DNA from: an uncultured Erysipelotrichaceae bacterium
GTDB lineage: Bacteria; Bacillota_I; Bacilli_A; RFN20; CAG-826
Length of the DNA: 49,686 bases
Direction: 5' to 3'
Assembly: GCA_902777015.1 (NCBI GenBank)
Contig: CACYSA010000010.1
Location: 1-49,686, forward strand
The notes under the pieces were generated by a model. The model worked only from the letters and a program-made list of their open reading frames with translations. It did not search any database and had not been told where the DNA came from. The position numbers and the translations under genes are program-made. Below, one piece after another: positions 35,923 through 47,301 of the stretch (its first letter is position 1; each line of letters starts with the position of its first letter).

Positions 35923-35928
35923 TAGAAT
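35900..35928 (+). promoter_or_regulatory. Promoter of the ileS T-box operon
   Basis: -35 TTGCCT (35900-35905), 17-bp spacer, -10 TAGAAT (35923-35928). It overlaps the end of the nuclease gene and points into the T-box leader. Confidence 0.65.
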
Positions 35929-35935
35929 TATGACG

Positions 35936-36153
35936 TCCTAGAAGACAAGTCTTCTTAAAGTCTGCTAATAGAGAGTTTGGGATGGTGGAAGCCAAACAGT
36001 AAGATTAAGAAGGTATCACTTCTTTGTATGAGAGCTGAACTAATAGTAAGCCTCCGAAAACTTCATCGTTAAGAAAGTAATTAAGTGCTAAAGATAGAAT
36101 CTTTAGAACTAAGGTGGTACCGCGCTAAGTAGCGTCCTTAGATGGACGCTTTT
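35936..36153 (+). promoter_or_regulatory. T-box riboswitch (isoleucine) upstream of ileS
   Basis: The leader contains the T-box core AAGGTGGTACCGCG (36111-36124), whose TGGT can pair with the tRNA ACCA end. It is followed by a terminator hairpin AGCGTCC/GGACGCT (36131-36150) and T residues. Stem I landmarks are GGGATGGTGGAAGCC and AGTAAGA near 35980-36006. A probable ATC isoleucine specifier is at 36015-36017. Uncharged tRNA-Ile should stabilise the antiterminator and switch on ileS. The 5' region also holds a GAAGAC-AA-GTCTTC hairpin. Confidence 0.93.
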
Positions 36154-45542: not shown

Positions 45543-45619
45543 GCGCTTGTAGCTCAGTTGGATAGAGCAACAGCCTTCTAAGCTGTGGGTCAGGCGTTCG
45601 AGTCGCCTCAAGCGTGCCA
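45543..45619 (+). tRNA. tRNA-Arg (anticodon UCU)
   Basis: A full cloverleaf can be folded: acceptor GCGCTTG/CAAGCGT (first pair G-U), D-arm TAGCTCAGTTGGATAGAGC, anticodon arm CAGCC-TTCTAAG-CTG with anticodon TCT, and T-arm AGGCG-TTCGAGT-CGCCT. The CCA end (45617-45619) is encoded. It reads AGA codons, which are abundant in these genes. Confidence 0.95.
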
Positions 45620-45631
45620 GATTATATGATT

Positions 45632-45664
45632 AACTTTGATACAAACTGGTATCAAAGTTTTTTT
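45632..45664 (+). terminator. Terminator of tRNA-Arg
   Basis: A perfect 11-bp stem, AACTTTGATAC/GTATCAAAGTT, around AAACTG, then a T run that reaches into the stop codon of the convergent yhcG gene. Confidence 0.92.
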
Positions 45665-46673
45665 ATTTCTTCTCCTCCTTTTCCAATTCATCAATAGTGG
45701 GGAGAGCACTCTTGCATTTTTCCGGAATTAAATTTGACAATTGATATTCAGAAATTCCTACTGGTAACCCCATTCCGTTAATGATGTGTTTGGCTAAGGT
45801 ATTATCTTTATTTTTACAAACCAATATCCCAACGGTTTTATTATCTTCTTCACCTTTAAGTGTGGCATCAATGGTGGCGGTATAGCCAATTAGTTGACCC
45901 ATGTGTTCTGGTTTAAATGGCCCAGTTTTTATTTCTATTACGACATAACAATGAGCTTTGATATTGTAAAACAATAAATCGCAATACATCTCGGTATAAC
46001 CCAAAAATAAGCGAACTTCCTTTCCGACATAGGCAAACCCATTTCCTAATTCTAAAAGAAAAGATTCTATATGCTTAGTTAGTTCATCTTTTAACTCTTT
46101 TTCATCATAATCTTCTCTAATTGTTAGGAAATCAAATTCGTAAGGATCTTTCATAATTTGATTAGTTATTCCAGCTTCAATAGAAGGTAGTGTTTTTGAA
46201 AAGTTGTCTAAAGTATTTTGACTCCTTTCGTACACGTTCGCTAAAATCCGACTTTCTAAGTCATATCTAGATAAATTGTTCTCGATAGTCGTTCTAATAT
46301 AAAATAAGCATTTCTCTAGTGTTTTACACTTATCAATAATAATTCTGTGGTGGCCCCATGGCACTGATAACAATTGTTCCACAACTTGTGGAAAAATCTT
46401 TTTATACATAGTATAAAATCTCTCGGAGTATCTAATGTTAATTTGAGATAAACCTTTAATGTTTGGATTTCTTTTAATTAATTCATCGCTTAGTGTTTTG
46501 TAAAACCTATTTCCATAACTAGCCTTGAATGACGTTTTTGAAATTTGCTCACCTAATTCATAATAGAATTTGATAAGTTCGCTATTAACGTGAATAGCAG
46601 CTTTAATTTGTGCCTTTTTGTAATTTTGGGAAAGGCTCTCTACCCATTTTTGAAAATTTGTGTCGACTATCAT
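45663..46673 (-). CDS. yhcG: YhcG-type PDDEXK nuclease (DUF1016)
   Basis: A 336-aa DUF1016 protein. The N-terminal domain (about 10-150) has YYELGEQISK, RNPNIKGLSQINIRY and SVPWGHHRIIIDKC, which are typical of this family. The C-terminal PDDEXK nuclease shows YTEMYCDLLFYN and YVVIEIKTGPFKPEHMGQL, with catalytic Asp, Glu and Lys. The family is predicted to cleave DNA and often sits in mobile or defence loci such as type I restriction islands; no methylase is present here. AGGAGG lies 8 nt before the start. It sits between tRNA-Arg and a structured RNA, on the same strand as the RNA and about 40 nt downstream of it. Confidence 0.9.
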   Translation of the reverse strand: MIVDTNFQKWVESLSQNYKKAQIKAAIHVNSELIKFYYELGEQISKTSFKASYGNRFYKTLSDELIKRNPNIKGLSQINIRYSERFYTMYKKIFPQVVEQLLSVPWGHHRIIIDKCKTLEKCLFYIRTTIENNLSRYDLESRILANVYERSQNTLDNFSKTLPSIEAGITNQIMKDPYEFDFLTIREDYDEKELKDELTKHIESFLLELGNGFAYVGKEVRLFLGYTEMYCDLLFYNIKAHCYVVIEIKTGPFKPEHMGQLIGYTATIDATLKGEEDNKTVGILVCKNKDNTLAKHIINGMGLPVGISEYQLSNLIPEKCKSALPTIDELEKEEKK

Positions 46674-46712
46674 TTTCTTTTCCTCCTATATTTCTAGCGA
46701 CTAGGTGTTTCT

Positions 46713-47051
46713 AGAAGGAAATAAAAGCCATCCAACTCAAAAACACCTTTTGTAACTAACTGCTGATATCCCTATCAACCATAGTTACTGGTGTTTCATC
46801 CTCCGTTGGATGGCCTCTGATTCAAATATAAACTATTTGTGTGGAGCGCGGGTAATATTGCTACATAAACCGTGTCCTAATGGTCACCATTTATTTATGT
46901 ACCGCCTTTACCTTCTGGGCGATGCTTTCCACAATGCAAGATCCTAACACATCCAATCTTGCAGTCTCTAGTAGGGTGTCCTATCGTTTACCTGCGTATG
47001 GTCGACTTTGCTCATGCTAGTTCATAGCGCCGATAGTCTGCTAATAGATAC
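46713..47051 (-). ncRNA. Unrecognised structured non-coding RNA (about 335 nt)
   Basis: This stretch has no convincing ORF and is much richer in G+C than other gaps. The minus strand folds into many perfect local helices (+ coordinates): 46727-46736/46805-46814 (10 bp), enclosing 46741-46747/46790-46796 (7), 46752-46758/46782-46788 (7) and 46764-46768/46773-46777 (5). Further helices are 46823-46828/46834-46839 (6), 46862-46869/46894-46901 (8), 46935-46942/46956-46963 (8) and 46981-46986/47031-47036 (6). A consensus promoter starts it near 47051, and its last hairpin is followed by CTTTTATTT. It lacks the signatures of RNase P RNA, tmRNA, SRP RNA or 6S RNA. It may end at the hairpin or continue as the yhcG leader. 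Confidence 0.7.
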
Positions 47052-47057
47052 ACGTTT

Positions 47058-47086
47058 ATTATAGCTTTGAACGCGCGATGTATCAA
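47058..47086 (-). promoter_or_regulatory. Promoter of the structured RNA
   Basis: Minus-strand -35 TTGATA (47086-47081), exact 17-bp spacer, perfect -10 TATAAT (47063-47058). Confidence 0.8.
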
Positions 47087-47132
47087 TTTAATTTATTATT
47101 AAATTAACTTTTATGGATGAAAATAATAAAAC

Positions 47133-47192
47133 AAGGGGTAGAAATTGTATTATTACACAGCATCCTAGCCATCGTATACAGTACCCCTTTTT
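47133..47192 (+). other. Large hairpin with T run upstream of the glycosyltransferase gene
   Basis: AAGGGGTA (47133-47140) pairs with TACCCCTT (47182-47189), enclosing TGTAT/ATACA (47146-47150/47176-47180), and is followed by TTTTT. A second hairpin with one bulge, TCTGGACA/TGTCAGA, lies at about 47192-47212. It could be a terminator of an unmapped short transcript or a leader element. The 62-codon ORF across this region looks spurious. Nothing else is seen between 47087 and 47280. Confidence 0.5.
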
Positions 47193-47285
47193 CTGGACAA
47201 AAATCTGTCAGAGAAAAGGGTTTTGCTATGGCAAGATATGACAAGGATTTGCGAATATTCAAATATATTTGCAATTTTTATTTTG

Positions 47286-47294
47286 TGGTATTAT
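47286..47294 (+). promoter_or_regulatory. Candidate promoter of the GT2-plsC pair
   Basis: TGGTATTAT, an extended -10 (hexamer 47289-47294), lies 7 nt before the GT2 ATG. No Shine-Dalgarno is present, so a leaderless message is likely. Confidence 0.5.
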
Positions 47295-47301
47295 TTTCTT
47301 T

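What the first reader, a model, noticed from the sequence alone, without database searches (positions are those of the whole stretch)
46671..47086. Unknown highly structured RNA placed just upstream of a YhcG/DUF1016 nuclease next to tRNA-Arg
A consensus promoter (TTGATA-N17-TATAAT) drives about 335 nt without an ORF that folds into at least eight perfect helices. These include a nested stem of 10+7+7+5 bp at its 3' end, followed by a T-rich tract and then by the AGGAGG of a PDDEXK nuclease gene. None of the common RNAs (RNase P, tmRNA, SRP, 6S) fits by signature. YhcG proteins are often found in defence or mobile loci. An RNA plus nuclease pair, or an RNA leader that controls the nuclease, would be new. 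Function is inference; promoter and helices are directly visible.
Basis: partly seen in the sequence, partly recalled or inferred. Interest (0 to 1): 0.8.

Follow-up and report, generated by a model that had tools for sequence, protein, structure and literature searches.

The report
RNA switch guarding swappable bacterial toxins
Chiefly in one family of uncultured Bacilli, the same roughly 330-base structured RNA sits just ahead of interchangeable toxin- and defence-like genes and conserves two mutually exclusive sets of base pairs, so it would likely act as a switch that keeps the gene off until a still unknown signal arrives.

Summary
The RNA (about 47051-46719, minus strand) is real but partly known: its 3' third is Rfam RF02941, 'COG3943 RNA', a 108-nt orphan filed as an sRNA gene. 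Of 279 genomes of the order 66 carry it (94 copies), 64 of them in the window's own family. In 93 of 94 copies (one is cut by a contig end) a gene or gene remnant of one of a few accessory families lies within 420 nt downstream: DUF1016/YhcG nuclease (48), a small protein with predicted MazF-like fold (21), RhuM-Fic (17), BrnT (5), KilA-N (1), phosphoesterase-like (1). At one chromosomal site the cargo differs from start codon to stop codon while RNA and flanks stay. The last 180 nt conserve two incompatible structures: a terminator-like stem with a hidden Shine-Dalgarno site, and an alternative that breaks both. I conclude that this is a modular cis-acting leader that likely represses toxin or defence genes until triggered. 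Trigger, transcript and effect on expression are untested.

The parts
47058..47086 (-). promoter-like TTGATA-N17-TATAAT
   Evidence: 11 of 12 consensus matches; consensus match only, no transcript data
46964..47051 (-). 5' domain, type I (P1 closing helix around the GGCGCTATGAACTAGC..GCAAAGTCGACCATACGC hairpin)
   Evidence: pattern classes over 90 copies: I 47, II 14, III 8, I/III-like 5, other 16; the pattern is loose and at least one copy filed as I looks like II
46935..46963 (-). P4 hairpin with conserved TGTTAGG loop
   Evidence: holds the two strongest covarying pairs of the core alignment
46915..46934 (-). core motif TTGTGGAAAGCATCGCCCAG, 5' strand of core stem
   Evidence: TGTGG pairs with CCACA of 46848-46838; changes on both sides keep pairing in 42 copies
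46851..46914 (-). variable hairpin region between the two halves of the core
   Evidence: differs in sequence and length between copies
46743..46850 (-). Rfam RF02941 (COG3943 RNA) match
   Evidence: 103.8 bits, gathering 71.8, E 2.3e-18
46823..46839 (-). P5 hairpin CAAATAGTTTATATTTG
   Evidence: 94.3% of cells paired, 4 of 5 pairs with change on both sides
46805..46815 (-). strand A (GGCCATCCAAC); pairs with B or with A'
   Evidence: A:B 99.4% and inner A:A' helix 99.2% paired; the same column covaries with both
46797..46801 (-). strand B (GGATG), local partner of A
46790..46796 (-). strand C (AAACACC), partner of C'
   Evidence: 96.3% paired with C', but only 1 of 5 pairs has a change on both sides
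46752..46788 (-). D helices between C and C'
   Evidence: outer helix: all 7 pairs with change on both sides, 95.3% paired; inner helix 83.9%
46736..46747 (-). strand C' (GGTGTTTTTGAG); pairs with C or with C''
46727..46736 (-). strand A' (GTTGGATGGC), 3' side of the terminator-like stem
46719..46726 (-). U tract after the terminator-like stem (TTTTATTT)
   Evidence: read from sequence; present at this place in the aligned relatives
46713..46721 (-). anti-Shine-Dalgarno strand (TTTCCTTCT)
   Evidence: pairs with the SD in the predicted fold
46703..46714 (-). strand C'' (CTAGAAACACCT), alternative partner of C'
   Evidence: C':C'' 92.8% of cells paired in 44 relatives; duplex beats at least 48 of 50 shuffles in 78 of 86 distinct linkers
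46682..46687 (-). Shine-Dalgarno AGGAGG of the nuclease gene
   Evidence: predicted unpaired probability 0.01 by default, 0.96 when C':C'' is forced
45663..46673 (-). cargo gene: DUF1016_N + YhcG_C PDDEXK nuclease, 336 aa
   Evidence: PF17761 106 bits, PF06250 175 bits, both over cut-off; PADLOC PDC-S02 E 5.7e-125
45543..45619 (+). tRNA-Arg(TCT) flanking the cargo gene
   Evidence: identity to the compared relatives ends at its 3' end or within about 35 nt of it

Best explanation
The RNA is a modular leader that precedes and is likely co-transcribed with the nuclease gene, and it most likely works as a two-state switch that keeps the gene off by default. Shown by sequence comparison: strand A can pair with B or with A', and strand C' can pair with C or with C''; these pairings exclude one another and both sets are conserved. 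Inferred: in the OFF state A:A' encloses C:C' and, with its U tract, ends transcription, while any read-through message hides its Shine-Dalgarno site in a second hairpin. In the ON state A:B and C':C'' form instead, the terminator-like stem cannot form, the strand that hides the Shine-Dalgarno site is held in the C':C'' loop, and the toxin or nuclease is made. The conserved upstream part (P1, P4, core stem) would be the sensor that decides between the states. What it senses is unknown; stress or phage infection is my guess from the cargo (toxins and phage-defence candidates). The leader behaves like a plug-in: cargo genes of different families are exchanged behind it.
For: Position: in 84 of 94 copies an SD-preceded ORF begins 55-86 nt (median 72) after the RF02941 match; by tblastn with representatives from the set, 93 of 94 have a cargo family within 420 nt on the same strand. 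Covariation on A1 (44 non-redundant of 94 copies): OFF structure 88.3% of cells paired, 139 cells with double-sided change against 42.5 in shuffles; ON structure 93.2%, 143 against 43.2; slid versions 26-56%. An unguided mutual-information ranking includes A:B, A:A' and a C':C'' pair. Predicted folds: A:A' in 43 of 43 transcripts cut at the U tract; SD unpaired 0.05 by default, 0.64 with C':C'' forced, opened in 41 of 43. SD unpaired below 0.1 in 36 of 44 leader genes against 23 of 101 other genes. Cargo exchange: G006 and G015 share 91% identity through flank and RNA to the start codon, then unrelated cargo, then 96% from within a few nt of the stop codon. No conserved upstream peptide.
Against: No transcript, no termination assay, no ligand. 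The forced ON state is a median 14.6 kcal/mol less stable than OFF, so a strong trigger or kinetic control is needed. In C':C'' 7 of 8 counted pairs vary on one side only, and in C:C' only 1 of 5 has double-sided change. The outer extension of A:A' pairs in only 47% of cells. 30% of foreign linkers pair better with C' than the own one. The mutual-information list also holds pairs that fit no helix. A standard terminator scan finds none here, as the loop is long and branched. Shuffle controls do not remove shared ancestry. Rfam files the family as an sRNA gene. Most DUF1016 and RhuM matches in 40 relatives have no such leader.
Confidence: 0.75

Rival explanations
1. The RNA is an antitoxin of type III or AbiF kind: it is transcribed with the toxin gene, ends mostly at the terminator, and neutralises the toxin protein by binding it.
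For: Same order of parts: promoter, structured RNA, terminator-like stem, toxin-like gene; in the C. difficile AbiF system the RNA RCd22 does both termination and toxin binding (PMC12373285, abstract and passages seen). 21 of 93 cargos belong to a small-protein family with a predicted MazF/CcdB/ToxN-type fold.
Against: One RNA family precedes at least five different protein families, one of which, BrnT, has a BrnA-type antitoxin gene behind it in the copy examined. No tandem repeats. Binding of the protein would not by itself require C'' and the anti-SD strand to be kept (inference).
Confidence: 0.12
2. It is a free-standing trans-acting small RNA, as Rfam's class says, and the gene behind it is expressed independently.
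For: Promoter-like sequence and terminator-like 3' end; Rfam type 'Gene; sRNA'.
Against: Tight same-strand spacing to the start codon in 84 of 94 copies, and pairing of C' with the linker up to the SD, better than at least 48 of 50 shuffles in 78 of 86 distinct linkers. At the tRNA-cluster site the two leaderless genomes have also lost nearly all of the cargo (G008) or its start (G011).
Confidence: 0.08
3. RNA and gene form a mobile element (homing or transposon-like), the RNA being needed for movement.
For: Copies in different chromosomal sites; two copies within G004 are 95.6% identical over about 410 nt with different cargo and flanks.
Against: Only the cargo families were recognised behind the RNA; flanks were not searched for transposases. 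The 'empty' sites found carry scars of old cargo, not clean pre-insertion sequence. Exchange of cargo is explained by recombination in the shared leader and the shared tRNA-side flank. No blastn match of the window's RNA in the plasmid and phage collections.
Confidence: 0.05

Closest known systems
Rfam RF02941, COG3943 RNA
   Same: Window 46850-46743 (-) matches the whole model above its gathering score; COG3943 is, from recall, the RhuM group, one of the cargos here.
   Different: Rfam models 108 nt and files it as an sRNA gene. Here it is the 3' third of a roughly 330-nt RNA with differing 5' domains, followed by a conserved linker, and RhuM is the cargo in only 17 of 94 copies.
AbiF RNA / RCd22 of Clostridioides difficile (RF03085, PMC12373285)
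   Same: Structured RNA plus Rho-independent terminator between promoter and an abortive-infection toxin; the terminator lowers expression of the gene (passages).
   Different: Different RNA (no RF03085 match), a different protein, several cargo families here, no repeated motif here, and here a conserved alternative pairing that would undo the terminator.
Type III toxin-antitoxin systems (ToxIN, CptIN, TenpIN)
   Same: Order promoter, RNA, terminator, toxin gene (passages of PMC8860590 and PMC12373285); one cargo family here has a similar predicted fold.
   Different: No tandem repeats; several cargo families; predicted to act on expression rather than on the protein.
Riboswitch-type leaders with terminator and SD control (general knowledge)
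   Same: Conserved upstream part, mutually exclusive pairings downstream, predicted control of the next gene.
   Different: Ligand unknown; the genes are not a metabolic pathway but different toxin- and defence-like families.

Membership tests
RF02941 COG3943 RNA | covariance-model score at or above the gathering score | tested here: met
   103.8 bits against 71.8
RF02941 COG3943 RNA | independent small RNA gene | tested here: inconclusive
   position and linker pairing argue for a cis-acting leader; no transcript data
DUF1016/YhcG nuclease (cargo) | PF17761 and PF06250 above cut-off | tested here: met
DUF1016/YhcG nuclease (cargo) | D and ExK residues of the PDDEXK site (motif from recall) | tested here: met
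   readable in the window protein; a strict pattern fits 28 of 35 full-length cargos and the other 7 printed rows keep D and ExK by eye
Type III toxin-antitoxin | terminator-like stem between RNA and toxin gene | tested here: met
   (predicted structure only; the standard scan lists none)
Type III toxin-antitoxin | tandem RNA repeats | tested here: not met
   0 repeats
Type III toxin-antitoxin | ToxN-type toxin | tested here: not met
   window cargo is DUF1016/YhcG
Type III toxin-antitoxin | RNA binds and inhibits the toxin | not testable with these tools
   needs an experiment
AbiF / RCd22 | RF03085 motif | tested here: not met
   not among matches with E up to 5 in 46600-47300
AbiF / RCd22 | Abi_2/AbiD/F protein | tested here: not met
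   Pfam gives only YhcG_C and DUF1016_N
Riboswitch | two mutually exclusive conserved structures downstream of a conserved domain | tested here: met
Riboswitch | ligand-binding aptamer | not testable with these tools
   no ligand known
Leader-peptide attenuator | conserved short ORF in the leader | tested here: not met
   22 of 43 leaders have some SD-preceded ORF of 10 or more codons, but peptides and places differ
MazF/CcdB/ToxN fold (KYHFR cargo of relatives) | structural match | tested here: inconclusive

The most novel reading that the evidence does not exclude
A single RNA sensor family serves as a universal plug-in trigger for solitary toxins: it reads an infection or stress signal directly, flips from terminator to open state, and releases whichever abortive effector (nuclease, Fic, MazF-like, BrnT) currently sits behind it. 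This would be a riboswitch-like class dedicated to bacterial immunity, with interchangeable effectors.
Probability: 0.3. Interest if true: 0.9.

Novelty: new variant of a known kind. Interest (0 to 1): 0.7.

Why it matters
How bacteria keep defence genes quiet and notice that it is time to use them is far less known than how the systems act (so the abstract of PMC12255303 in the listing). Here one RNA design is reused ahead of several different effectors, and at one site effectors are swapped behind it gene for gene. That gives an orphan Rfam family a testable job, predicts which bases decide between off and on, and offers a way to find new toxins and defence genes: look behind the leader. It already points to an unannotated small-protein family with a predicted MazF-like fold.

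Tried and rejected
Housekeeping RNA or intron: no Rfam match other than RF02941 and two chance rows in the region at E up to 5; in 11 relatives' loci, besides RF02941, only tRNAs, one c-di-GMP-I riboswitch and three rows below their gathering scores. Leader peptide: no conserved ORF. A pairing of core strand CCACA with UGUGG of strand A was considered by eye and dropped, since variants of CCACA are not matched there. Promoter conservation: 89 of 91 upstream stretches hold a TATAAT-like hexamer, but without a control that is too weak in AT-rich DNA to count. Clean empty site: the two leaderless copies of the tRNA-cluster site (G008, G011) hold remains of old cargo, so they show loss, not the state before insertion; the window's own site could not be compared because identity to relatives stops near the tRNA-Arg on one side and only G004 shares the other side. 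Phages, plasmids: no blastn match of the window's RNA. Viral contigs: one pattern match, on a contig stretch that ends about 310 nt after the motif, without a listed ORF behind it and with a very long gene before it that looks like a surface protein; RF02941 was not run on it. Sequence search of the PDB with the KYHFR alignment: one row, E 0.18. Literature: 'COG3943' with 'RNA motif' gave no paper, and RF02941 / COG3943 RNA / COG3943 motif / COG3943-RNA gave none; the paper that I recall as the source of the family was not held, so I have not seen what it says. The PADLOC web-server paper has no mention of PDC (passages); 'phage defense candidate' for PDC-S02 and S05 is from passages of PMC13356809.

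Full report
What is there. The minus strand from 47086 to 46673 holds a promoter-like sequence (11 of 12 consensus matches), about 330 nt without a conserved ORF, a terminator-like stem with a U tract, a Shine-Dalgarno site and then a 336-aa DUF1016/YhcG PDDEXK protein. The stretch folds better than all of 100 shuffles (z -4.73). On the other side of the gene lies tRNA-Arg(TCT).

It is not wholly unknown. Infernal finds Rfam RF02941, COG3943 RNA, at 46850-46743 (-) with 103.8 bits against a gathering score of 71.8. Rfam calls it an sRNA gene of 108 nt. At E up to 5 only two chance rows join it in the region. No paper in the held library named RF02941 or a COG3943 RNA in my two searches.

Distribution. 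RF02941 is in 14 of 59 relatives, in 66 of 279 genomes of the order with 94 matches, 64 of the 66 in the window's own family, and in 8 of 392 genomes drawn across the phylum, all 8 in that family, the window's genome included. A model built here (R1, from A1) finds 8 of 395 genomes drawn across the class, again all in the family; one of them, G019, was not among RF02941's matches, and its copy lies upstream of a DUF1016 gene. blastn with the window's RNA finds nothing in plasmid or phage records. Four contigs of the set can be recognised by equal length as uncultured Bacilli (two), Bacillales and Erysipelotrichaceae; the two Bacilli are from ruminant reticulum.

The RNA is larger than Rfam's model and modular. 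In 91 of 94 copies a pattern finds the core motif upstream of the Rfam part; of the three misses two are cut by a contig end and one is diverged. P4, a hairpin with a conserved TGTTAGG loop, and the core stem TGTGG:CCACA keep pairing through changes on both sides. The 5' end carries one of several different domains: by loose patterns type I 47, II 14, III 8, I/III-like 5, other 16 of 90 copies; at least one copy filed as I (G231:C8) looks like II. Types I, II and III each occur with several cargo kinds.

From the gene's side the link is not obligatory. In 40 relatives PF06250 gives 26 matches in 14 genomes and PF13310 23 matches in 15 (some are pieces of one gene). R1 finds a leader beside 8 DUF1016 and 5 RhuM genes among those loci.

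Cargo exchange at one site. Five genomes (G006, G015, G005, G001, G007) carry the RNA between the same small gene and a tRNA cluster (for G006, the others by identity); G004 shares the tRNA side and parts of the other flank. G006 and G015 are 91% identical through flank and RNA up to and including the start codon, then have a DUF1016 or a RhuM gene, and are 96% identical again from 6 nt before the end of the one gene and 1 nt after the end of the other. G007 has a different DUF1016 subfamily there; identity to G006 ends in the linker and returns at the stop codon. G008 lacks RNA and gene except for a remnant of about 50 nt that resembles the end of the G007-type gene; G011 keeps remains of RhuM without the RNA. 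In G004 two leaders at different sites are 95.6% identical over about 410 nt with different cargo. So cargo appears to be swapped behind a constant leader, probably by recombination in the shared flanks (inference).

Two structures. On A1, 44 non-redundant copies aligned from the Rfam start to the start codon, I counted both. OFF (A:A', C:C', D, P5): 88.3% of cells paired, 23 of 32 pairs with double-sided change, 139 such cells against 42.5 +- 6.7 in shuffles, 0 of 500 shuffles as high; slid versions 26.5-50.0% paired. ON (A:B, C':C'', D, P5): 93.2%, 19 of 30 pairs, 143 cells against 43.2 +- 6.8; slid versions 35.6-55.9%. P5 and D count in both, and supply much of the double-sided change. The same column of A covaries with B (AU 32, GC 11) and with A' (AU 33, GC 8, GU 3). 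C':C'' pairs in 92.8% of cells, but 7 of its 8 pairs vary on one side only, mostly U-A to U-G, as expected if C' is held by its other partner C; C:C' itself has one pair of five with double-sided change. Of the top 90 pairs of an unguided mutual-information ranking, 32 are paired in over 75% by weight; they include A:B, A:A' and a C':C'' pair, and also several that fit no helix. The C':C'' duplex averages -12.0 kcal/mol against -5.3 with shuffled linkers; 78 of 86 distinct linkers beat at least 48 of 50 shuffles; swapped linkers average -10.4, and 30% of foreign linkers pair better than the own one, so most of the signal is shared consensus.

Predicted consequence. In transcripts ending at the U tract A:A' forms in 43 of 43. 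In the full 3' part the Shine-Dalgarno site is unpaired with mean probability 0.05; with C':C'' forced it is 0.64, higher by over 0.1 in 41 of 43 and lower in none; A:B then forms in 32 of 43. For the window: 0.01 and 0.96, at -54.0 and -42.6 kcal/mol. The cost of the ON state (median 14.6 kcal/mol) means that something must pay for it or that folding during transcription decides. Compared with other genes of the window and 16 loci, leader genes hide the site more often: below 0.1 unpaired in 36 of 44 against 23 of 101 (Mann-Whitney p about 1e-13; cargo genes were not removed from the control).

Reading. The arrangement promoter, sensor-like RNA, terminator, hidden Shine-Dalgarno site, toxin gene resembles two known kinds: type III toxin-antitoxin loci, and the AbiF system, where RCd22 both ends transcription before the toxin gene and neutralises the protein (PMC12373285, abstract and passages; PMC8860590, passages). 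Membership fails on tested features: no tandem repeats, no RF03085 match, another protein. What it works like is open to both ideas, but one RNA neutralising a nuclease, a Fic protein, BrnT and a MazF-like protein is unlikely, while one cis-acting switch ahead of all of them is simple. I therefore favour a switch that keeps the gene off by default. Shown: conservation, pairing, position, exchange. Inferred: termination, translational block, sensing. Guessed: that the signal is infection or stress.

Noticed in passing
window 35927-36142 (+): T-box leader (RF00230, 111 bits).
   Followed up: no
L021:6437-6796 (+) and relatives: A 109-120 aa 'KYHFR' protein family without a Pfam match over cut-off and without PADLOC or NCBIfam match, with a predicted MazF/CcdB-like fold.
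   Followed up: partly
G000:C1:98118-98638 (L429): The window's own genome holds a broken RhuM relic next to genes that also flank the G004:C13 leader + RhuM copy; RF02941 has no match there.
   Followed up: partly
L001:332-407 (-): c-di-GMP-I riboswitch (50 bits, gathering 35) near a leader copy.
   Followed up: no
L396, L397, L398, L408 and L431: Four leaderless DUF1016 genes and one RhuM gene are followed by a phosphoesterase-like ORF (TGDTHGD[IV]DYKKLL), the same kind of protein that follows one leader copy in G031.
   Followed up: no
L033 (G031:C102:9806): A leader copy with a short ORF and then a phosphoesterase-like ORF, the only copy with this label.
   Followed up: partly
core alignment columns 21 and 56 (window: P4 loop side with GCATCGCC): A covarying G-C/A-U pair outside the helices (paired in 93% by weight), possibly a tertiary contact or pseudoknot.
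   Followed up: no
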